Assembly (NCBI GenBank): GCA_016219005.1
Contig: JACRCN010000091.1
Coordinates: forward strand, 1 to 55,353
DNA from: Deltaproteobacteria bacterium
GTDB taxonomy: Bacteria; Desulfobacterota; Desulfobacteria; Desulfobacterales; SpSt-501
Reading direction: 5' to 3'
Length of the DNA: 55,353 nucleotides
Each line of letters begins with the position of its first letter. Position 1 is the first letter of the stretch. The notes beneath the pieces are model-generated. The model worked only from the letters and a program-made list of their open reading frames with translations. It was not told the origin of the DNA and ran no database searches. The position numbers and the translations under genes were made by a program. This document shows positions 33,914-44,247 of this stretch, piece by piece.

Positions 33914-36739
33914 CTAACGTCTCACTCTTCGGCCGCCCTTTATAATGAAAGTCTTCAGTGTCTGGTTGACCGTAACATTGACGCTGCTATCAACCGTCAA
34001 GTTGTCCTGATCCTTTATCGCCACCTGGAAGCTGTAGCTTCCCGCCTTGGTGAACGTTGCCGTCGAGTTCCTTGCACCATTTGTCCCGTTGGCGCTGAAA
34101 GTCACTGCCGCCGGGGGTGTCCCCGATGTCGCCCAGGTGTAGGTCAGGCTTGCTTCACCACCATCATCCGCCCCAAGGACGCTGAGGCGGGTTGTTGCGC
34201 CAGTTGCTGGGTTGGGGCTGGCCGAAGCAGCCACTGCCACAGTGGGAGGGAAATTGGCGGGAGGGCTGGAACCGAGATCTTCCGCATAGATACAGTACCG
34301 ATAGTTGCTTCCTCCAGTGGTATTGATGGGGCTTGGCCACGTGCCGTAGGTCAGCGCATTCGTCCACCGCGTTGTGCCGCCGGACGGATCGCAGTAGACT
34401 CCAGCTCTCGTGCTTTTGAGATTGGACCAGATGGCCAGCCAGTAATAATTACCGGACACGATGTTCTGTGAAGAGGTCAGGGCGAAGGTTTGCCATCCGT
34501 CAGCCGGATTGGTTACCTCGGCACTTGCTTTGAGCAGGGTTTGCGGCACTCCCCCGTTGTCACTATAAATTGCAGCCTCGTACTTGCCGGTGATGCCGAG
34601 AACCTTGGCCTTAATCGTCGTTACGTTCAGATTGGCCGAGGCCCGGAACCTTGTTGCATTGAAGTACGACCCGCTCGAATCGCTGATGTAGTCTGTCGTT
34701 GTTCCTTCCCCGTTGTAGCCTATAATCCCCCCGCTGGTAGGGATTGCGCTAAATTTGGCGGTTATCGTATGGTTCCCGGACACATTGGCGAATGTGTAGC
34801 CGGCAACTGTGCCAATCGACCCGCCATCTACCTCTACATCCGAGATCGCATACCCGGCGTTCGGAGTAATGGAAAACGTTGCATCCGCCCCCTGGATTAC
34901 TAAAATGTTGGCTGAGGGGCTTATTCTTCCACCTGTTTCGGCGTTTGCGGTAATGGTAAAAGTTGCGGCCACGCTGCCGGAGAGAACAACCACATCACCG
35001 GTCCGCATCCTCTTAATATCCACCGCATAATCCCCATTGCCCAAGCTTCTGACCATGTAGCCTTCGGCATTCAGGTCGGACCGTAACGGCAGCGCAACAC
35101 CACCAACCGCGACTTCAGCCGGAAGGAATGCCAACCGGAGATACTCGATTCCTTCACCGTCGGTGGGTGTATATTGTATTCTTCCGGGGGCATAGGATAC
35201 GTTTTTCAAAACTGATACCGAATACCGAATATGGTTTTCTGAAGGTGGCGCCCATTCGGGAACTGCCATAAATCCATAGAAGAACATCCTCGGACCTTCA
35301 CCATAGGCGTCAGCCCACCAATACCCCACACCATCTGTGGGCCCATCTGATGACTCACCATTTTCTTTCATCATGTATGTTGAATAGTTGAAACCACGGT
35401 AAGCTTTATCTCTATAAGTCTCATCGCCCGTAACCGCGAACCACGCAGCATATTCCGCAGCCAATCTTGATGTCTGATAGCCCATCTTCTGTCGGTAGGC
35501 AAACTGCTCAGATACCACGTAAGCACCATAGTACACCGGCGGGTACGAAGTCCCGTCATAAACAAAATTATCTTCGGTCCAATCTAAAAGCTTAGGCACA
35601 TCCGTCATAAAACCAGGGTCAAAATCGGGATTGTCCAGAAGATAAAGATTCATATTACTCTTGCAGGTGTTGCTCCAGTTTGTATTTCCATCAATACGAA
35701 CATCGCTGTGTCCATCTACCCAGTTGCCATTCTGCATGGGATATTGCAGAATCCAATCTTTAAGTGTTTGACGTGCAATCTGGTAAGCTGACACATTGCC
35801 TTCGTCATGCTTGATCAAAAGATCGAACAGTGTCAGAGCGCCAGCCCAGTTTGCGCAATATTTCGATTTAACGACTCCCGTACTCGCGTTCACAACATAG
35901 GGCCAGGGAGAGTCGGTGGCACTGCCAGGTTGGATATTGCTTGCCAGGACGTCGGCCGTATTGATGGCTGCGGTTCTGTATCGCTCATCCCCGCAAATCA
36001 GGTACATTTTGTAAAAACTCATTCCCATATCACTTGCGAGATCAACAAGTACATCCCATTGGCTCCATGCTACATTTTTACCCTGGATTTCTGTATCGCC
36101 GCCATTGGCTGTGCCAATTGGAAAATTCGGCCATGCAAAATTCGATGGCGTCGTAGCATGATCGAGTGAGTAATCCACGAGACCCTTGGCAATATTCAAG
36201 GGGCCCATATCTCCCGAGTACGCGTAATACAATCGTCCGAATTCAACCCAGTTGGGAAGCCGTTCACCCCAATCATTTTCCCAGTTATTCGGGCTTATTG
36301 GATTACCAGGTTCGAATCCGCAATATAGATAGTACATCGGCAAGGAAGATGAGGGGCCGTTGGGAACTGTGGGGATGTATTTCCACAGTTGACTGAGGTA
36401 TTGATCATATGCATGGGTGGCTGGTGCATACCAGGGAAGGATCTTGTTCTGATCGTCCAAAACCACAGTGTGATAGCGCAGAACTTCTGCGAAGCAGATG
36501 GTATTCTGAACCAGCACCAAACAAAAAATCAGAAAACAGATTTTCCTCAAATTCTTACCTAACCTGAGCGATTTTTCATAAAAGCCACCCGCAGTTTGGC
36601 GAATTTCGGAAATGATCTGCTTGCAGGCTTGGCGAGTCTTGACGGTGGCGGCCTCGTCGTCCTGCATCAGGCGGCGGCAACCGACCACGTCGGCGCTGAG
36701 GATTGCGGTAAGCTTGCGGTGAAAGCCTTTCTTTTCCAT
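33914..36739 (-). CDS. Chimeric ORF: class III cyclase N-terminus fused to secreted glycosidase-like multidomain protein
   Basis: 941 residues. Residues 1-53 match the start of class III adenylate/guanylate cyclases (RKLTAILSADVVG, RRLMQDDEAATV) but stop before the catalytic GDG region. Residues ~65-84 are a signal peptide (RKICFLIFCLVLVQNTICFA), oddly internal. Residues ~85-520 resemble an (alpha/alpha)6 six-hairpin enzyme fold (ELGRLYYAYSGD-like repeats of helical pairs, many Trp/Tyr). Then an InlB-B/Flg_new-type repeat (~590-665, FSITPNAGYAISDVEVDGGS), a beta-sandwich (~670-800) and a PKD-like domain (~815-915). A full AGGAGGTG precedes the ATG at 36739. An alternative start is the TTG at 36550 (AGGTAAGAA upstream), which would put the signal peptide at the N-terminus and is probably the native start. 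Substrate unknown; polysaccharide is inferred. Confidence 0.75.
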   Translation of the reverse strand: MEKKGFHRKLTAILSADVVGCRRLMQDDEAATVKTRQACKQIISEIRQTAGGFYEKSLRLGKNLRKICFLIFCLVLVQNTICFAEVLRYHTVVLDDQNKILPWYAPATHAYDQYLSQLWKYIPTVPNGPSSSLPMYYLYCGFEPGNPISPNNWENDWGERLPNWVEFGRLYYAYSGDMGPLNIAKGLVDYSLDHATTPSNFAWPNFPIGTANGGDTEIQGKNVAWSQWDVLVDLASDMGMSFYKMYLICGDERYRTAAINTADVLASNIQPGSATDSPWPYVVNASTGVVKSKYCANWAGALTLFDLLIKHDEGNVSAYQIARQTLKDWILQYPMQNGNWVDGHSDVRIDGNTNWSNTCKSNMNLYLLDNPDFDPGFMTDVPKLLDWTEDNFVYDGTSYPPVYYGAYVVSEQFAYRQKMGYQTSRLAAEYAAWFAVTGDETYRDKAYRGFNYSTYMMKENGESSDGPTDGVGYWWADAYGEGPRMFFYGFMAVPEWAPPSENHIRYSVSVLKNVSYAPGRIQYTPTDGEGIEYLRLAFLPAEVAVGGVALPLRSDLNAEGYMVRSLGNGDYAVDIKRMRTGDVVVLSGSVAATFTITANAETGGRISPSANILVIQGADATFSITPNAGYAISDVEVDGGSIGTVAGYTFANVSGNHTITAKFSAIPTSGGIIGYNGEGTTTDYISDSSGSYFNATRFRASANLNVTTIKAKVLGITGKYEAAIYSDNGGVPQTLLKASAEVTNPADGWQTFALTSSQNIVSGNYYWLAIWSNLKSTRAGVYCDPSGGTTRWTNALTYGTWPSPINTTGGSNYRYCIYAEDLGSSPPANFPPTVAVAASASPNPATGATTRLSVLGADDGGEASLTYTWATSGTPPAAVTFSANGTNGARNSTATFTKAGSYSFQVAIKDQDNLTVDSSVNVTVNQTLKTFIIKGGRRVRR

Positions 36740-37030
36740 GCCGGCACCTCCTAGGTAGAAAGTTTTGCAAAATCCAGGATGAGAGAGGTGAGTCCGAAAT
36801 GAAAAAGCGAGGTCCGAACTGAATGACGAAGCCAGAATCCGCTTCAGGTCCGGTGGAAATGGGGAAGTCTACATTTGAAACGCAGTATACCTTAATAAGA
36901 GTGGAAAAGTCAATTGAAATTGTAGCGGGATGTGGCCTGTATCACAGCGAAGCGCCATTTTGTGATTTGTCGGATGGTTTCTCCGGAACGCTCCCCATCT
37001 GTGAATTGATCGCAAAGTTGATCGATATCT

Positions 37031-37087
37031 GCACCTTGGCCGCCCATCTTGAATTTACCAGCGATCCCTTCTCCCGCCAATCATTCC
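37031..37087. repeat. 57-bp dispersed repeat, copy 2
   Basis: Same orientation as 30391-30447. It lies upstream of the cyclase-derived start of the chimeric ORF and 74 bases before the right 85-bp repeat. Confidence 0.7.
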
Positions 37088-37160
37088 TGAAAAAGATCAT
37101 GGGCTTCCAGTAAATTCATGTTTTCACACCCGCCCCCCATTCTCCCTCGAACGATAATGT

Positions 37161-37245
37161 GATGCCGGACGCCGTGAGCGTCTATGCGTCCACTTCGCGG
37201 CATGCAAACCTGCCTATCCATGTCAATCAATATATCAATACCCGT
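37161..37245. repeat. 85-bp direct repeat, right copy
   Basis: 83 of 85 bases match 33704-33788. After the repeat the two copies diverge within a few bases (both go on to a TAAATC close by). Confidence 0.92.
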
Positions 37246-37613
37246 TAAATCTTTGGACTGTTCAGAGCAGTGTTGAGGTGTGTGGATGGGAGATGGTGAT
37301 CATTAAGCTATGTAGCGCGCCCGGTTCCCCGGACACAAGGTTGTAGTTCACGCGGCCTGTTGGAAAGGGCCTCGAACCATGCTTTCCGATAGAATTTTAT
37401 GTCATTGATTAAGCATACATTTTCCGCTATTCTTTTAGACAAAATCAGAAACGCCTTCTCTGTATAACACAGTTGAACTTTGCACGAAACGGAGAAAAAC
37501 TTGCCAATTGCAAAATTGGCAGCAGATCGATTAAGACTCCGATTGCATGCAGCGCTACTTACTGGCATCGCTATACCGCTCGAAAAGTATTCAGCCTTGA
37601 AAGGCAAAGATAA

Positions 37614-39824
37614 TTGATAGAAAGAAATTTCGACATTTCGTTCATCGCGAATTTAGCGCTTCGCGAAAAACAGATCCAGCAGAACTATAGGCCGATTATC
37701 GCCGTACATAAGTGGTTTGCCCGCAGACCCGGTACGCTCTTTCGCGGACTACTGCTTGCAGAGTTTCTTGATATACCCCTCTCAGTGGCTTTCTACGACT
37801 CCAACAAACTGAAGGGGATCAGGGTTGCAGATCCTTTCATGGGAGGGGGCACTCCTCTAATTGAGGCAAATCGTCTTGGCTGTGATGTTATAGGATTTGA
37901 CATCAATCCAATGTCATATTGGATTGTCAAGCAGGAGATTGAGCATCTCGATTTGGACGAATATTCTCGAGCGGCTAACTCCCTTCGATCCAGCTTGGAG
38001 AAGGAGATAGGAACCCTCCACCGTACACGATGCGTTGCCTGTAACTGTGAGGATGCTCACGCTAAATATTTCCTTTGGGTAAAAACCATCATTTGCCAGA
38101 AATGCAACCAATCAATTGACCTGTTTCCCGGTTACCTTCTATCCTCCGACTCCAGACACCCCAAAAACGTCATTGTATGCCACAACTGCGGGCTACTAAA
38201 TGAAACGGCTAACAAAGAAAAGCCGGGCATTTGCCGCCACTGCCGTCATGAGCTCACCCTGGAAGGGCCAGCTAAACGCGGGCATTGCGAATGCCGCAAC
38301 TGTGGCACAGCTAATAAATTCCCTAACAAGGCTTTGGGGCCTCCCAAACACCGTCTTTTCGCCCTTGAGTATTATTGCCAAAATTGCAGAGACAAACATT
38401 CCGGAAGGTTCTTCAAGGCACCTGATTCACAGGACTTGGCACAGGTGCAAGAAGCGGGAAAGCGGTGGGAAAAGACTCGCGCCAAGTATGTCCCTGTCGA
38501 CGAAATTCCTTCTGGCGACGAGACAAATCGTTTGCATCGATGGGGATACACACACTACCACGAGATGTTCAACTCCCGGCAACTCCTCGGATTAGAATTG
38601 TCGGCGCGAATAATTGATCGAACAAGTAACGCACGAATCAGGAACGCCCTATCAACCAACCTTTCAGACTTACTCCGCTATCAGAACATGCTTTGCCGAT
38701 ATGACACCATGGCATTGAAATCTCTTGACGTTTTTTCAGTTCACGGATTTCCGGTTGGACTCATTCAGTGTGAGTCCAACTTTCTCGGAATTGTGGTGCA
38801 AAATAGAAATAATCTCGTCGGCAGCGGCGGTTGGGCGAATATCGTCGAAAAATTCCGCAAGGCGAAAGCGTACTGCGACAGCCCCTTCGAAATCAGACAT
38901 CGTGGCCGGACCAAGGAAATTGTTCCAATCAGCGGTGAATGGATCGGAGACAATCCAAACGGCAAGCATAAAGATGAAAGAAGAAGTGTTGAACTTCATT
39001 GTAGCGATGCTGCGGTAGCGGAGTTACCTTTTTCTTCATTGGATGCGGTCTTTACCGATCCACCCTATTTTGGAAACGTCCAATATGCAGAACTAATGGA
39101 TTTCTGTTACGTATGGCTCCGTAAACTCATACGTAGCAAAGCCGATGCATTCGGTAATCTCTCTACACGTAATCCTGCCGAGCTGACCGGCAACGTAGAC
39201 ATGGGGAGGGGAATTGGCCACTTTGCCCAAGGGTTATCATCCGTTTTTCAGCAGATGGCCAAAGCACTCAAACCCGGTTCACCGTTGGCCTTTACCTATC
39301 ATCACAACGATCTTGCCGCATACCATCCAATTGCCGTCGCTATCCTTGACGCCGGCTTGACCTGCTCGGCTTCGCTGCCTTGCCCTGCGGAAATGGGAGC
39401 CTCCATTCATATAAACGGAACAGGCTCATCCATAATTGACACTGTTTTCGTCTGTAGAACAACCGGCTCTGTCCCCGGGAAATGGGTAGTAAAATCGATA
39501 GAAGGAGTCGCTAACCTTGTCAAAGAGGACTTGGCCAAACTCCGTGCCGGGAATGTAAAGCCTACTCCAGGTGACATTAGATGTATTGCATTCGGGCATC
39601 TCATTCGTTTGGCGATATGGAATCTTCGAAAAGATTGGGTGAAGAATGTTGATATCAATAAGCGACTATCGGTAATTGCATCCTGGCTCACCCAATTTGG
39701 AATTTGGCAAGATATAGAAAAGCATTTTTACGATCCAGAGGAACAGTTCCACGATATGCCATTGTTCGCTATCCGTGAGACTCAAGACAACTACGGGGTC
39801 ACTAATAATGAAGTATCCTTTTGA
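37614..39824 (+). CDS. DNA methyltransferase with zinc-ribbon insertion (restriction-modification type)
   Basis: 736 residues starting at TTG with AAAGG upstream. ALREKQIQQNYRPIIAVHKW then FARRPGT is the N-terminal pattern of DUF1156-like adenine methyltransferases. SAM motif I is DPFMGGGTPLIEA (D73) and the catalytic motif IV is TDPPYFGNVQY (D482), so this is an amino-methyltransferase acting on A or C. Between them (~140-265) lie at least five CxxC pairs (CVAC, CQKC, CHNC, CRHC, CRNC, CQNC), making two or three zinc ribbons. The stop overlaps the start of the nuclease gene, so the two are translationally coupled. DNA here is visibly more AT-rich than the flanks, which suggests horizontal acquisition. 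The target sequence is unknown. Confidence 0.87.
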   Translation: MIERNFDISFIANLALREKQIQQNYRPIIAVHKWFARRPGTLFRGLLLAEFLDIPLSVAFYDSNKLKGIRVADPFMGGGTPLIEANRLGCDVIGFDINPMSYWIVKQEIEHLDLDEYSRAANSLRSSLEKEIGTLHRTRCVACNCEDAHAKYFLWVKTIICQKCNQSIDLFPGYLLSSDSRHPKNVIVCHNCGLLNETANKEKPGICRHCRHELTLEGPAKRGHCECRNCGTANKFPNKALGPPKHRLFALEYYCQNCRDKHSGRFFKAPDSQDLAQVQEAGKRWEKTRAKYVPVDEIPSGDETNRLHRWGYTHYHEMFNSRQLLGLELSARIIDRTSNARIRNALSTNLSDLLRYQNMLCRYDTMALKSLDVFSVHGFPVGLIQCESNFLGIVVQNRNNLVGSGGWANIVEKFRKAKAYCDSPFEIRHRGRTKEIVPISGEWIGDNPNGKHKDERRSVELHCSDAAVAELPFSSLDAVFTDPPYFGNVQYAELMDFCYVWLRKLIRSKADAFGNLSTRNPAELTGNVDMGRGIGHFAQGLSSVFQQMAKALKPGSPLAFTYHHNDLAAYHPIAVAILDAGLTCSASLPCPAEMGASIHINGTGSSIIDTVFVCRTTGSVPGKWVVKSIEGVANLVKEDLAKLRAGNVKPTPGDIRCIAFGHLIRLAIWNLRKDWVKNVDINKRLSVIASWLTQFGIWQDIEKHFYDPEEQFHDMPLFAIRETQDNYGVTNNEVSF

Positions 39825-40836
39825 AACGCCTTTCGATGAGATACTTAAAAACTCAGAACATTATGTGGATGCCGTATTCTCCTGCCTTGAATCGGAATTC
39901 CTTGTGATGCCCAAGGGTGTTGGTTTCATTGAATACCCTGTGTTCGAGCGAGGATATGAGGCACTGAAGGCAGCAACTAAGGGGTTTTTAGAGTTTGATC
40001 CGATCAAGGTGTTTGCAGTGGTTATGGCAGAGCCGATTTGTATTGTGGTTCTGCGTACTATGCTCGGTTTCACACCACCAGAGTGGGGTTATGTTACGAC
40101 TCAGCGAACCGGGATTAGCGTGACGCAAGGGTTCGTAAGGTCTCTGGATAGGAAGGTTAGAATTTCACCGGAGACCCCCCTTAGAACTAACGGTGTAACC
40201 AAGGAAAGACTGAAGCCGCTGGTAGAAACCGCTTGTAGAATGCTTTCAGAGGAAGTGCCCCAGGTTAACGACAATCAAATGCATCGATTGAATAAAGCAG
40301 ATACCAAGGGCGGGCTCAACAGTTTAAGAAATGTCGCTGCTATGGGCGTACCCTACGCAATGCTTCTTTACGAGAGGTTCCTTGGAAGGCCATTTGCAGG
40401 TCATCGTGATTCAGTCAGTGAGTTAGTTGGTGACAGCCTTGAATCCGCAATTGAAGATGTTTTGACCAAGGCTGGCATAAGCTACCGAAAGACAAAACGC
40501 GCAGAAAAGATTGAAGGGTTCGATCAAACTCCGGATTTCATCATTCCGAGCGAGTTCAATCCACAGGTCATTATCGAGGCGAAGATTACTGAAGACGATG
40601 GCACAGCCCGAGACAAGGTGACGCGTATTCAGCATCTTGGCGAATTGAGCGTTGCAGGCCGCTCAGTGAATAACCCAAAATACGAGGTTATAGCTTGCAT
40701 CGGAGGGCGTGGCTTTGGTGTCCGCCGTGAAGATATGAAGAAGATGATTCTTGCAACCAGAGGCAAGGTGTTTACGCTAAAGACTCTCGGTCAAATAGTA
40801 GATTTTACCCAGCTTAAGAATTTCAGGACAAAGTGA
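39808..40836 (+). CDS. PD-(D/E)XK-type restriction endonuclease (partner of the methyltransferase)
   Basis: 342 residues from the ATG at 39808, which overlaps the methyltransferase stop by 17 bases. The nuclease core is in the C-terminal third: D243 in QTPDFIIP and E257-x-K259 in VIIEAKITEDDG, the PD-(D/E)XK arrangement, preceded by an alpha-helix (SLESAIEDVLTKAGI). The N-terminal two thirds are not recognised and would give target recognition. An in-frame upstream start at 39775 is possible but inside the methyltransferase. Coupling to a methyltransferase makes a type II-like restriction-modification system the best reading. Confidence 0.82.
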   Translation: MKYPFETPFDEILKNSEHYVDAVFSCLESEFLVMPKGVGFIEYPVFERGYEALKAATKGFLEFDPIKVFAVVMAEPICIVVLRTMLGFTPPEWGYVTTQRTGISVTQGFVRSLDRKVRISPETPLRTNGVTKERLKPLVETACRMLSEEVPQVNDNQMHRLNKADTKGGLNSLRNVAAMGVPYAMLLYERFLGRPFAGHRDSVSELVGDSLESAIEDVLTKAGISYRKTKRAEKIEGFDQTPDFIIPSEFNPQVIIEAKITEDDGTARDKVTRIQHLGELSVAGRSVNNPKYEVIACIGGRGFGVRREDMKKMILATRGKVFTLKTLGQIVDFTQLKNFRTK

Positions 40837-40952
40837 CAGGCCTTTTGCGCGAAGGTAAAAGACGCAGGTAAAGGGCTCCCTTTTTTTTAACCTTGCAATA
40901 AAAAAGAACGGGGTGTCACATCTCGTTTACTGGTTATAGCCAGTTTCTTCAT

Positions 40953-41219
40953 TCAGTCCTCTGTTGAAACCACGCCCCGGCAGTCGGGAAAGTTCGAGCA
41001 ACCCCAAAATTTCTTTCCTGAATGCTGTCCCTTCTTCGCCACGCGCAGCACTATCTCACTGCCGCATTTGGGACATGCTCGGGCGACTTCCTGCTGAGCT
41101 TCCATGTTTCCGCTTTGCTGGACCGAGGCGATCATCTGCGTCAGCTTGGGGCCATCGATCAAGGCAATCGCGTTTGCCTTGCGAACCTGATTTAACGCCG
41201 ACACCGCCGCCACGCCCAA
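40953..41219 (-). pseudogene. C-terminal fragment of an Mrr-like restriction endonuclease
   Basis: 88 residues: the end of the Mrr-type nuclease domain (KANAIALIDGPKLTQMI) followed by a topoisomerase-type zinc finger (ACPKCGSEIVLRVAKKG, FWGCSNFPDCRG). The catalytic half is missing. The upstream side runs directly into the RhuM fragment in another frame, so this is a deletion remnant. Confidence 0.8.
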
Positions 41220-41491
41220 ATGGCCACGTCCAAGTTGACATAAGTCACAGGCTTGTCGGAATTTGGAATATGCATTTTTTGCATATTGCCCTTCTCCTCA
41301 AGCTCCCCCTCCTTGAACACATTCCGCACATGCCGAGATATAACGGATTGATTGCGCTGAAAAAGCTCGACCATCTGGGATTGGTTCAACCAGACGGTAT
41401 CTCGCTCCAAATGCACATCTATGGAAGTCATCCCGTCAGAAGTCCGGTAAATAACTACTTGCCCTTGATTTTCCGTTGGGTCCATCAGCAC
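41220..41491 (-). pseudogene. N-terminal fragment of a RhuM-family protein
   Basis: Starts with SIDVHLERDTVWLNQSQMVE and continues with LFQRNQSVISRHVRNVF, EGELEEKGNMQKMHI and KPVTYVNLDV, the first ~90 residues of RhuM (virulence RhuM / Fic-associated) proteins, normally ~330 long. It then breaks off into a short out-of-frame tail at the junction with the Mrr fragment near 41220. Confidence 0.8.
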
Positions 41492-41686
41492 AACCTTGTA
41501 AAGACATAGGAACGTTTTTGACTACAGGTAATCGAGACCATGTTCCATCATTGCCGATTTTTTACCTTTAACGAGGCTTGATTCCGAATCGCAAACTTAA
41601 CACAGCCCCGCCCTGTTGAAACAAAAGGAGGATATCTTCACCCCTTTCCCCAGCCTGGCCAACGTTTAACAGATTCTAATGTAGCC

Positions 41687-41932
41687 TTACTGGTTCTTCA
41701 AGGCATCATCCATTTCTTTCGCTTTATCTTCCTGCTGTTGCGCGACGGAACGGGCCTTGTCGATGGGGGTGCGGATCTGGTTGACGGCTTCTTTGGCGGC
41801 ATTTTCGGTCATTTTCTGGATGGCGCTCTTCTCTATCGCTGGCTCCTTCTTGTCGGAACAGCCCCAGAAAGCCCCGCTAAGCAGCATCACCCCGATCAAG
41901 CAGTATGAAAAACGTTTTTCATAAAATCGCAT
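41687..41932 (-). CDS. Small lipoprotein
   Basis: 81 residues from the ATG at 41932 (AAGG upstream). A signal peptide (FSYCLIGVMLLSGAFWGC) ends in a near-standard lipobox, so the mature chain would start at Cys and be lipid-anchored. The remainder is a charged helix (AIQKMTENAAKEAVNQI, QQQEDKAKEMDD), likely a coiled coil. Family not recognised. It lies 32 bp downstream of the Fic gene on the same strand. Confidence 0.65.
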   Translation of the reverse strand: MRFYEKRFSYCLIGVMLLSGAFWGCSDKKEPAIEKSAIQKMTENAAKEAVNQIRTPIDKARSVAQQQEDKAKEMDDALKNQ

Positions 41933-41964
41933 GTGTGACCTTAAATTCAGCATGACCCTCTTTA

Positions 41965-43020
41965 TTACCCTCTTTTAAGGTCATTACCCTTTCTCCGCCA
42001 GGCCGCACCGGGGCCACGGCCGAGGCATTCCACCCGTTTGTCTTTCTGCATTTGGCGGAGCACTCGTCTGATCATGTCCCGGCTGACGCCGGGGCAGGCG
42101 CGTTCGACCTGGGTCACCGTGAATTGTCCCGCTGCAGCCTTGACTGCCGTTTCAATCATCTGCGTTTTGGCACCAGGGGGGCTTGGGGTGTGTCCCAGGC
42201 GCTCCTCAAACTCTCTGTAGGCTTCGCGGAGCGTGGACAGAATGAAGTTGACATACGGCCATGGATCATGTCGGCCCTCATGCCAACCCGACGAGCTTTG
42301 CTCGAGCGTTTCGTAGTACCTTTCCTTGTGCTGTTCGATCAGGCGTTCGATGCTGATGTAGCGCCCCACTTCGTAGCCGAGATGGTAGAGCTGAAGCAGC
42401 AGCATCAGTCTGGACACTCGGCCGTTGCCGTCGCGGAAGGGGTGAATGCACAGAAAATCAAAGTTCCAGGCCGCCAGCATCAAAAGCGGCGGAACCCGAC
42501 GTTCCTCGATGCCCTGATTCCACAACGAAACCAGTTCCTTCATCGCACTGGGGGTCTGCTTGGCGGTTACAGTCCGGAAACGGACACGCACGCGCCCATC
42601 CGCCAGTTTCTCGATGATATCGCTGTCTTTTTTCTTGTACCGGCCGGCATCACCGACCTCACCCCTCGCCAGCGCATGCAAGGTTTTGATGATGTCCTCC
42701 GAAGCAGGTGGGCGATCCTCGTGGATCAGCTTGAGCGCATTCCTGTAACCGCGGAGTTCTTCTTCGTTTCGGTCGTGCAGAAAGGATTTTCCGAAAACGA
42801 CGGTGGCCACACGCGACCGGGCCACCGTCACCCCTTCGATGCGGTTCGACGACACGGCACTTTCCACCAGCGCGCGTTCTCTTAAGGTTTTGAGCCTTTG
42901 AGGCGCTTGCTTCGTGAAAAGCTCCTGCTTGCCGCGGGCCTCTCCGAGATCGGTCAAGTACCAGACGGTGCCTGCCGGGACGGTCGGCGGGGATGATATT
43001 AATTTTCTCAAGGTATTCAT
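41965..43020 (-). CDS. Fic-domain protein (class II, with inhibitory helix)
   Basis: 351 residues. The catalytic loop is HPFRDGNGRVSR (H193), the consensus for AMP transfer to hydroxyl side chains. An inhibitory motif SSNRIEGV (~58-65; S-x-x-x-E-G) lies N-terminal, which defines class II autoinhibited Fic proteins. A winged-helix-like C-terminal part (TVTQVERACPGVSRDMIRRVL) follows, common in this large DUF4172-like group. The target protein is unknown. No antitoxin gene is needed because the inhibitory helix is internal. Confidence 0.92.
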   Translation of the reverse strand: MNTLRKLISSPPTVPAGTVWYLTDLGEARGKQELFTKQAPQRLKTLRERALVESAVSSNRIEGVTVARSRVATVVFGKSFLHDRNEEELRGYRNALKLIHEDRPPASEDIIKTLHALARGEVGDAGRYKKKDSDIIEKLADGRVRVRFRTVTAKQTPSAMKELVSLWNQGIEERRVPPLLMLAAWNFDFLCIHPFRDGNGRVSRLMLLLQLYHLGYEVGRYISIERLIEQHKERYYETLEQSSSGWHEGRHDPWPYVNFILSTLREAYREFEERLGHTPSPPGAKTQMIETAVKAAAGQFTVTQVERACPGVSRDMIRRVLRQMQKDKRVECLGRGPGAAWRRKGNDLKRG

Positions 43021-43458
43021 AATGTCAACTTACCCAGCCGGCTCTTCTTAATATACATAGCAAACGCCTTTGAACGGAACATATCGTAAATCCTGGGCGC
43101 TCATGAGGAGTGATCCGTTTTTTTTGGTTGAAATTTTATCCGGGCATAAACCCCGGAAGCCATCAAATGAAAAGGCCCGGCCAGGTCGCTGACGACCAAG
43201 GAGCAATGCCCACCGCCGGAATGTGAGACAAGGATATCACGTCCGGTACAACGCATCAAGATCATTATGAATTAAGGACGATAGGATGATTAGATCGGTG
43301 GGCGGGATCGATTGGATCAGCGCTCTCACCACCAAGCCTTCAAAGGGTTAGCCCCCACGCCCGTCCCGCCGGTTGGATGGCATGCCGCCGGAAAAAAACC
43401 TTGACGGGGTTCAATTTCCAGGATACTTATATACATAACTACTTAACCACTAAAGCAT
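43021..43458. other. Intergenic region, 438 bp, with repeat and gene vestige
   Basis: Contains repeat copy A (43128-43271). Next to it, 43297-43330 resembles the 3' end of the small membrane protein gene at 48300 (shared GGATCAGCGC and GGGCGG...ATCGA), in the same orientation. The vestige and the repeat together look like the decayed tail of another copy of that locus. Confidence 0.55.
43128..43271. repeat. 144-bp dispersed repeat, copy A
   Basis: Aligns without gaps to 49938-50081 in the same orientation at about 72 percent identity (104 of 144 by hand). TTGAAATTTTAT at one edge and AAGATCAT near the other are exact. The complementary strand of both copies stays open in one frame (shared GRDIL/GRGIL and ARIKFQ), but no start or ribosome site is seen. 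Confidence 0.7.
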
Positions 43459-44247
43459 ATGCCCAAGCCTTCCTCCGACCATTTATTGCCCGTCAACGGC
43501 AAGAGACCGCCGGCCGGCACCGGCCGGCTCGACTCCGGTTCATTCGTACCCCTCTACCATCAACTCAAGGAAATCCTCAAATCCTCCATCACCGCCGGGG
43601 TCTGGAAAGCCAACCAGATGATCCCTTCGGAAAACGAGCTGGCGGCAACCTATGATGTCGCCGTCGGCACGGTGAAAAAGGCCTTGGCGGAATTGACCCG
43701 CGAGGGCTTCATCCTGCGGCGGCAAGGCAGGGGAACCTTCGTGGCCCGCCCGGATTTCGGGCGCAGCTTCTTCCGCTTTTTCAGATTCGACCTGGATCAG
43801 GCGAGCGACGGCGTTGTTCCGATTTCACGCGTGCTTTTCGCCGGCGCGAGCCGGCCGCCTTCCAGGGTCCGGGACGTCCTGCGCCTTTCCAAGCGGGAAC
43901 GGGTGCTGCAAATCAAGCGGCTGCGCGCGCTCAACGACCTGCCCCTGATGTACGAAGACCTCTATCTGCCGGAAAAAACCTTCGCCGGCCTGGACCGGAT
44001 GGATATTGCGCGCGAGCTGCTCTATCCGCTCTACGACTCCCGGTTCAACACGCCCATCATCTGGGCCGACGAGTTCCTGGAACCGCGCCTGGCGACCCCC
44101 GAGGTTGCCGGGCATCTCGGTATTGCCCCGGGCGCGCCGGTGATTTTCCTCGAGCGCATCGCCTACACCTTTGAAGACAAACCAGTCGAGTTCCGTTCCA
44201 GCTTCGGGCGGGGCGATCGCTTCCGCTACCACATCGAGCTGCGCTGA
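43459..44247 (+). CDS. GntR-family regulator with UTRA ligand domain
   Basis: 262 residues. The winged helix (~28-98) shows FVPLYHQLKEILKSSI, IPSENELAATYDVAVGTVKKAL and GFILRRQGRGTFVA. The UTRA domain (~115-258) has LPLMYEDLYLPEKTF and FLERIAYTFEDKPVEFR. HutC-type regulators of this kind repress catabolic operons until a pathway acid is bound. It lies first in the cluster with the hydrolase and TTT transporter, so it probably controls them. No strong ribosome site is visible. Confidence 0.92.
   Translation: MPKPSSDHLLPVNGKRPPAGTGRLDSGSFVPLYHQLKEILKSSITAGVWKANQMIPSENELAATYDVAVGTVKKALAELTREGFILRRQGRGTFVARPDFGRSFFRFFRFDLDQASDGVVPISRVLFAGASRPPSRVRDVLRLSKRERVLQIKRLRALNDLPLMYEDLYLPEKTFAGLDRMDIARELLYPLYDSRFNTPIIWADEFLEPRLATPEVAGHLGIAPGAPVIFLERIAYTFEDKPVEFRSSFGRGDRFRYHIELR

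What the first reader, a model, noticed from the sequence alone, without database searches (positions are those of the whole stretch)
37614..40836. Coupled restriction-modification pair with a multi-zinc-ribbon methyltransferase
The methyltransferase has motif I at residue 73 and motif IV at residue 482, a gap of about 410 residues filled partly by at least five CxxC pairs. The partner is a PD-(D/E)XK nuclease with a large unrecognised N-terminal part, and the two genes overlap by 17 bases. DUF1156-like methyltransferases are known in anti-phage loci, but this compact two-gene form with a zinc-ribbon block in the catalytic domain is unusual. The DNA is AT-rich and flanked by repeats and gene debris.
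Basis: partly seen in the sequence, partly recalled or inferred. Interest (0 to 1): 0.6.

Follow-up and report, generated by a model that had tools for sequence, protein, structure and literature searches.

The report
Two-gene restriction system, unassigned nuclease family
Two overlapping genes encode a DNA-marking enzyme and a predicted DNA-cutting enzyme that travel together between distantly related bacteria; they very probably form an ordinary kind of anti-virus restriction system, but with a cutting enzyme from a family that the protein libraries searched here do not hold.

Summary
A 736-aa methyltransferase (M, 37614-39824) overlaps a 342-aa protein (R, 39808-40836) by 17 nt; motif I is at residue 73, motif IV at 482, six CxxC pairs lie between. 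The genes are tightly linked: M sequence lies beside R in 44 of 48 R loci (the other 4 start at a contig edge), the overlap register is the same in 37 of 37 relatives assessed, and 16 of 16 phylum genomes with a close M have R next to it. R has an invariant PD-x13-ExK pattern; its predicted fold is closest to type II restriction enzymes (BstEII, Z 9.5), on a model of middling confidence. A distant branch of the R family sits beside an unrelated methyltransferase; relatives of M sit beside an EcoO109I-family enzyme (one locus) and an unassigned ~270-aa family (six loci). Best reading: a mobile type II restriction-modification system whose nuclease family is absent from Pfam, NCBIfam and PADLOC. 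The zinc-ribbon block is less unusual than thought: CxxC pairs occur in 15 of 15 related methyltransferases examined. Flanking repeats were not confirmed. The recognition site is unknown; an avoidance test was negative. No activity was tested.

The parts
37614..39824 (+). M: DUF1156/PglXI/HmaB-like DNA methyltransferase, 736 aa, TTG start
   Evidence: PADLOC PglXI E 3.7e-25, DUF1156_MTase E 1.3e-24, HmaB E 1.4e-24; phrog_10183 E 1.1e-89; NF042963 112.5 bits, cut-off 1000
37644..37784 (+). DUF1156-like N-terminal region of M, residues 11-57
   Evidence: PF06634, E 1.3e-4, 22.4 bits against a gathering score of 24
37830..37850 (+). motif I (AdoMet-binding) DPFMGGG, residues 73-79
   Evidence: PF01555 and PF02086 matches start here; motif name recalled
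38031..38387 (+). zinc-ribbon block, six CxxC pairs, residues 140-258, in the probable target-recognition insert
   Evidence: position of the insert from a passage of PMC12839542; zinc binding itself not tested
39057..39068 (+). motif IV (catalytic) DPPY, residues 482-485
   Evidence: invariant in 31 sequences; motif name recalled
39808..40836 (+). R: predicted PD-(D/E)XK type II restriction endonuclease, 342 aa, ATG 39808
39808..39824 (+). 17-nt overlap of M and R
   Evidence: same register in 37 of 37 relatives assessed, 29 of which have ATG one codon earlier (20-nt overlap)
40015..40260 (+). R residues 70-151, helical part weakly resembling a repressor-type DNA-binding domain (hint only)
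   Evidence: POU domain row Z 5.4, below the noise level the tool states; no Pfam match in four fragments
40531..40584 (+). PD-x13-ExK nuclease pattern, residues 242-259
   Evidence: D243, E257, K259 invariant in 34 close sequences and in 16 close plus distant ones

Best explanation
The pair is a self-contained type II restriction-modification system. M, an amino-methyltransferase of the order motif I, target-recognition insert with zinc ribbons, motif IV (most likely N6-adenine, recalled from DPPY), marks one short site in host DNA. R, a PD-(D/E)XK endonuclease with a helical N-terminal part that may help bind DNA, cuts that site when unmarked. R is translated from a start codon inside the end of M, which probably couples R to M. 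The unit moves between genomes as two genes without fixed neighbours. Shown: gene pairing, conserved overlap, invariant catalytic-type residues, purifying selection, co-divergence, patchy spread. Inferred: the enzymatic activities, the shared target site, phage defence and the coupling.
For: Linkage: M sequence beside R in 44 of 48 R loci; the other 4 begin within R at a contig edge. 16 of 16 phylum genomes (the window's own among them) with M above 490 bits have R adjacent. Same overlap register in 37 of 37. M and R distances co-vary: Mantel r 0.87, highest of 2000 permutations 0.46, n = 31. dN/dS in two close pairs of relatives: R 0.03 and 0.18, M 0.11 and 0.12; the window against four relatives gives pN 0.10-0.20 with pS 0.74-0.83, near saturation. 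D243, E257, K259 invariant; the three best VIA-align rows are restriction enzymes, BstEII Z 9.5, BsoBI 8.7, PspGI 7.9. In 5 of 5 distant-branch R loci with upstream DNA an MTase gene of another class lies directly upstream. Decay: of 48 loci R alone is broken in 5, M alone in 1, both in 4, although M is twice as long; this fits a nuclease harmful without its MTase. The closest other compact relative of M among the 15 fetched lies beside an EcoO109I-family restriction enzyme, E 6.3e-16.
Against: R has no match at the curated cut-off in Pfam, none at E 1 in NCBIfam or PADLOC, and no meaningful PDB sequence match. R model: mean pLDDT 72.9, pTM 0.52; Foldseek gave no hit at E <= 0.001, best 9.1e-3; Z 9.5 covers 151 of 342 residues, and the tool states that best Z of 7-8 is typical without any relative, so only two rows stand out. 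The fold search of M was weak, best Z 6.0, to RNA methyltransferases. No recognition site was found: palindrome avoidance in 8 genomes with the pair and 2 without gave nothing specific. The decay asymmetry rests on six loci from draft assemblies, where frameshifts may be errors, and in L022, L039 and L044 only part of M is held. Many records are metagenome bins, so the host names may be wrong for single contigs. No activity has been measured.
Confidence: 0.86

Rival explanations
1. The pair is a reduced BREX-related or Hma-type multi-gene defence locus, with M part of a larger complex and R an accessory nuclease.
For: M scores best in PADLOC against PglXI, DUF1156_MTase and HmaB; COG1743-DUF499-helicase operons are described (PMC7641849 passages), and a DUF499 gene lies near a relative of M on a haloarchaeal plasmid.
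Against: No ATPase or helicase family was seen to recur beside the pair (read by eye) and none was matched among eight window ORFs near it; M is far below the NF042963 cut-off (112.5 against 1000 bits); in the Microbacterium region with a distant R none of 12 annotated features is named ATPase or helicase.
Confidence: 0.05
2. R is a modification-dependent nuclease (type IV-like) that cuts DNA carrying a foreign mark, and M is not its protective partner.
For: R belongs to no named REase family; such nucleases exist (recalled).
Against: Linkage with M, conserved overlap and co-divergence; M alone broken in 1 of 48 loci against R alone in 5; the best fold rows are ordinary type II enzymes.
Confidence: 0.05
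3. The locus in this genome is decaying or silent, and only relatives have a working system.
For: AT-rich region with short leftover ORFs next to it; 10 of 48 loci have one or both genes broken; TTG start in the window.
Against: Both ORFs are full length with all invariant residues; pN is far below pS against four relatives; GTG or TTG also occurs at the homologous start in intact loci L009, L011, L033 and L040.
Confidence: 0.04

Closest known systems
Compact relative of M with an EcoO109I-family REase (unnamed phylum genome G328, locus L137)
   Same: MTase of the same class (410 bits with the M profile, motif I 77, motif IV 481, five CxxC pairs) adjacent to a restriction enzyme gene
   Different: its R is of Pfam family RE_EcoO109I and gave no match to this R's profile at E 1; R lies upstream of M; seen in one locus only
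Compact relatives of M with a ~270-aa upstream partner (Tabrizicola piscis and Acidiphilium multivorum plasmids, four unnamed phylum genomes)
   Same: two adjacent genes with an MTase related to M (28% identity in the plasmids; CxxC pairs in the four genomes)
   Different: partner is another protein family, no Pfam match in the four tested and no PADLOC match in the four tested, carrying a PDF...EIK pattern; partner lies upstream
Distant branch of the R family with an N6_N4-type MTase (Microbacterium plasmid NZ_CP120713 and four unnamed phylum genomes)
   Same: R homologous over most of its length, 24-28% identity, sharing PDF...E.K...D.GTARDK; MTase gene directly upstream
   Different: MTase is of the opposite motif order (TSPPY before DPFAG.GT), about 300 aa
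BREX-related (BR) and type-3 BREX methyltransferases, Hma systems
   Same: DUF1156 helical region and target-recognition insert between the core motifs (PMC12839542 passage); PADLOC similarity
   Different: those belong to multi-gene systems; such partners were not seen to recur here
BstEII, BsoBI, PspGI restriction endonucleases
   Same: predicted fold of R aligns best with them, Z 9.5, 8.7, 7.9
   Different: identity 12-18%, no sequence-level match

Membership tests
Type II restriction-modification system | DNA methyltransferase with AdoMet-binding and catalytic motifs | tested here: met
   motif I residues and DPPY invariant in 31 sequences apart from one position of motif I; family matches
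Type II restriction-modification system | methyltransferase and endonuclease genes linked | tested here: met
   44 of 48 loci and 16 of 16 genomes
Type II restriction-modification system | partner is an endonuclease | tested here: inconclusive
   PD-x13-ExK invariant and fold rows favour it; prediction only, activity not tested
Type II restriction-modification system | no obligatory helicase, translocase or specificity subunit | tested here: met
   55 loci compared: apart from one sensor-like family in 11, no neighbour family lies in more than 5; functions of neighbours read by eye; many loci have short flanks
Type II restriction-modification system | both enzymes act on the same site and methylation blocks cutting | not testable with these tools
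   needs biochemistry or a methylome; k-mer avoidance was uninformative
NCBIfam NF042963, anti-phage-associated DUF1156 protein (equivalog) | score at or above the curated cut-off | tested here: not met
   112.5 bits against 1000
Pfam PF06634 DUF1156 | score at or above the gathering score | tested here: not met
   22.4 against 24 bits over residues 11-57: just below, hence 'DUF1156-like'
BREX-related / Hma multi-gene systems | partner ATPase (e.g. DUF499) and helicase-nuclease genes | tested here: not met
   none matched among eight window ORFs near the pair; none seen to recur in relatives (by eye)
PD-(D/E)XK nuclease superfamily (R) | core fold with D...ExK active site | tested here: inconclusive
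   residues invariant; fold rows favour it but the model is of middling confidence and Pfam matches are below cut-off
BstEII-like REase family (R) | shared fold with homologous sequence | tested here: inconclusive
   Z 9.5 over 151 residues, 17% identity; no sequence match

The most novel reading that the evidence does not exclude
The family shows free recombination of modules: one REase family has teamed up with two unrelated methyltransferases of opposite motif order, while one zinc-ribbon methyltransferase class has teamed up with two, probably three, unrelated nuclease families. If R keeps its target site across the swap, two unrelated methyltransferases must have converged on one site; and R may read DNA with a repressor-like helical domain.
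Probability: 0.35. Interest if true: 0.5.

Novelty: new variant of a known kind. Interest (0 to 1): 0.4.

Why it matters
It adds a probable restriction-enzyme family that the libraries searched here miss (window R and three distant relatives), so such genes may be listed as hypothetical proteins, as in the Microbacterium plasmid. It ties a methyltransferase class described in multi-gene defence systems to plain two-gene restriction systems, and gives a set of natural partner swaps with which to ask how a methyltransferase and a nuclease come to share one DNA site.

Tried and rejected
Recognition site by palindrome avoidance: palindromes of 4 to 7 bases under a maximal-order Markov model in sampled stretches of 8 genomes with the pair and 2 without. 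CTAG, CGCG and CGATCG were low in the carriers but low in at least one control too. CAGCTG looked promising in two genomes (14 seen, 68 expected; 2 seen, 25 expected) but not in others (33 of 34; 30 of 33) and was low in a control (5 of 33). Rejected.

Helix-turn-helix in R: suggested by eye and by a POU-domain row (Z 5.4), but no Pfam match in four fragments at E 10 and only E 0.4 to a sigma factor in the PDB. Kept as a hint.

Conserved third gene: 55 loci compared. One family spans 11 loci and its printed example reads like a PAS-type sensor protein (by eye, no family search); others span 3 to 5 loci, several of them from near relatives (L025, L030, L032). None looked like a defence gene.

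Recurrent truncation of R near residue 257 (L006, L049, L050): L006 and L050 carry identical sequence there, L049 has a different junction; read as separate deletions during decay.

Phage origin: no R match in the phage collection; M was not searched there. Plasmids: one distant R match.

Same-genus comparison for an empty site: the flanking Fic and OsmC-like genes have only 26-41% matches in the other same-genus genomes, so no empty site could be shown.

Literature, listings seen: searches for DUF1156, COG1743, Zn-ribbon methylase, and zinc ribbon with restriction-modification listed no paper whose title names this two-gene form; two of the listed papers were opened for passages, the others not. 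The library lacks most subscription journals, so this does not show that it is unpublished. Searches for BstEII and EcoO109I were seen as listings only and not used.
Full report
What is there. Two ORFs on the + strand overlap by 17 nt: M (37614-39824, TTG, 736 aa) and R (39808-40836, ATG, 342 aa). M carries DPFMGGG at residue 73, DPPYF at 482 and six CxxC pairs between residues 140 and 258. R carries PDF at 242 and EAK at 257-259. GC is 0.46-0.49 around the pair and 0.60-0.68 over much of the window. No convincing repeats were found within 36000-43500.

M. Library matches place M with DUF1156-type amino-methyltransferases: PADLOC PglXI, DUF1156_MTase and HmaB at E 3.7e-25 to 1.4e-24, PHROG 10183 at E 1.1e-89, NF042963 at 112.5 bits, far under its cut-off of 1000, and Pfam DUF1156 at 22.4 bits, just under 24. 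The order motif I, insert, motif IV is that of the alpha group of amino-methyltransferases (recalled). A 2026 paper describes BREX-related methyltransferases with DUF1156 and a target-recognition insert after core strand 2 (PMC12839542, passages seen); the term 'zinc ribbon' does not occur in its main text. From the 17 other phylum genomes with a weaker M-like match, 15 were fetched; in 15 of these 15, the methyltransferase has 2 to 8 CxxC pairs and a DPPY or DPPF motif, so the zinc-ribbon block is a trait of the class. The fold model of M (pLDDT 70.7, pTM 0.64) matched only weakly, best Z 6.0.

R. R has no match at the curated cut-offs of Pfam, and none at E 1 in NCBIfam or PADLOC; sub-threshold Pfam matches are TPD, EcoRII-C, PDDEXK_11 and RmuC, all over the C-terminal part. 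D243, E257 and K259 are invariant in 34 sequences. The model (pLDDT 72.9, pTM 0.52) was compared with the PDB: no Foldseek hit at E <= 0.001, the best 9.1e-3 to BstEII; in the second look the top rows were BstEII Z 9.5 (rmsd 4.0 over 151 residues), BsoBI Z 8.7 and PspGI Z 7.9, with folds unrelated to nucleases at Z 5-6. The tool notes that a best Z of 7-8 is typical for models without a relative, so only the first two rows stand out. This supports, but does not prove, a PD-(D/E)XK restriction enzyme.

Pairing. A scan of genome contigs found 48 loci with R relatives, in records titled Deltaproteobacteria, Nitrospirae, Nitrospinota, Verrucomicrobia, Fermentibacteria, Hydrogenedentes, Sedimentisphaerales and others; most are metagenome bins. 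M sequence is adjacent in 44 of 48; the remaining 4 begin within R at a contig edge. In 37 of 37 loci assessed for the junction (11 of the 48 were left out, because a gene is broken or cut there) the reading-frame register of the overlap is identical; 29 of the 37 have an ATG one codon before the window's, giving a 20-nt overlap. In 395 genomes of the phylum, 33 had an M-like match at E <= 1e-30; the 16 with M above 490 bits (the window's genome among them, two of them broken copies) all have R sequence beside it, while of the other 17 only G216 has R sequence at E 1e-5, as a remnant fused to an M remnant. Some of these genomes are probably the same organisms as loci, so the two counts are not independent. 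In the genus, 2 of 7 genomes carry the pair, the second a divergent copy (R 47%, M 62%), and G004 has a 33-residue M-like match; presence is patchy. M and R distances co-vary strongly (Mantel r 0.87, 2000 permutations all below 0.46, n = 31). Both genes evolve under purifying selection.

Decay. Of 48 loci, 34 have both genes uninterrupted in the sequence held, 5 have R alone broken (L022, L039, L044, L045, L050; in the first three only part of M is held), 1 has M alone broken (L043), 4 have both broken (L048, L049, L055, L056) and 4 cannot be judged. M is more than twice as long as R, so by length M should break more often. The asymmetry fits a nuclease that is harmful without its methyltransferase, but six single-gene cases in draft assemblies are few.

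Partner swaps. A distant branch of the R family (24-28% identity; PDF, E.K and D.GTARDK shared) occurs in a Microbacterium plasmid, where the gene is annotated 'hypothetical protein' behind a site-specific DNA-methyltransferase, and in unnamed phylum genomes. In 5 of 5 such loci with upstream DNA (L058, L092, L094, L095, L097; two more, L093 and L096, lie at contig ends) a methyltransferase of about 300 aa with the opposite motif order lies directly upstream; two were confirmed as N6_N4_Mtase by Pfam, one by PADLOC, two only by reading the motifs. Weaker C-terminal relatives of R (L098-L101) reach the Pfam cut-off for DpnII and also sit beside methyltransferases. Thus relatives of both halves repeatedly occur in restriction-modification-like pairs.

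Mechanism. Most likely M methylates, probably an adenine (DPPY; recalled association), in one short site read through its insert, and R cuts the unmethylated site. The start of R inside M suggests translational coupling. Among 55 loci compared, no third gene looks like an obligatory partner (functions read by eye), so the unit is probably autonomous. The target site is unknown and the avoidance test was negative.

Verdict. An ordinary kind of system, type II restriction-modification, in an uncommon make-up: a zinc-ribbon DUF1156-like methyltransferase with a probable restriction-enzyme family not covered by the libraries searched. The COG1743-DUF499-helicase operons described in PMC7641849 (passages) and the BREX-related systems use related methyltransferases in larger assemblies (that M belongs to COG1743 is recalled, not tested); this pair lacks those partners as far as seen.

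Noticed in passing
Perhaps another unassigned restriction-enzyme family.
   Followed up: partly
L048, L049, L104, L253: Remnants in which the start of M is followed directly by the end of R, with four different junctions; a way of losing both genes at once.
   Followed up: partly
L009:10169-10833: A second, degraded copy of M (about residues 1-156 and 252-343) about 1.1 kb downstream of an intact pair.
   Followed up: no
L098-L101: DpnII-family nucleases weakly related to the C-terminal part of R, beside one methyltransferase gene each, two in L099.
   Followed up: no
window 41965-43020: Fic/DOC-family protein (PF02661, E 1.8e-15) downstream of the pair.
   Followed up: no
window 33914-36739: 941-aa ORF with a sub-threshold PKD match at its end (26.7 against 27 bits) and, by eye, a signal-peptide-like stretch well inside the ORF, so its start may be a chimera with an unrelated fragment.
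   Followed up: no
window 40953-41491: Two short overlapping ORFs on the - strand, one with a Zn_ribbon_Top1 match, looking like leftovers of larger genes.
   Followed up: partly
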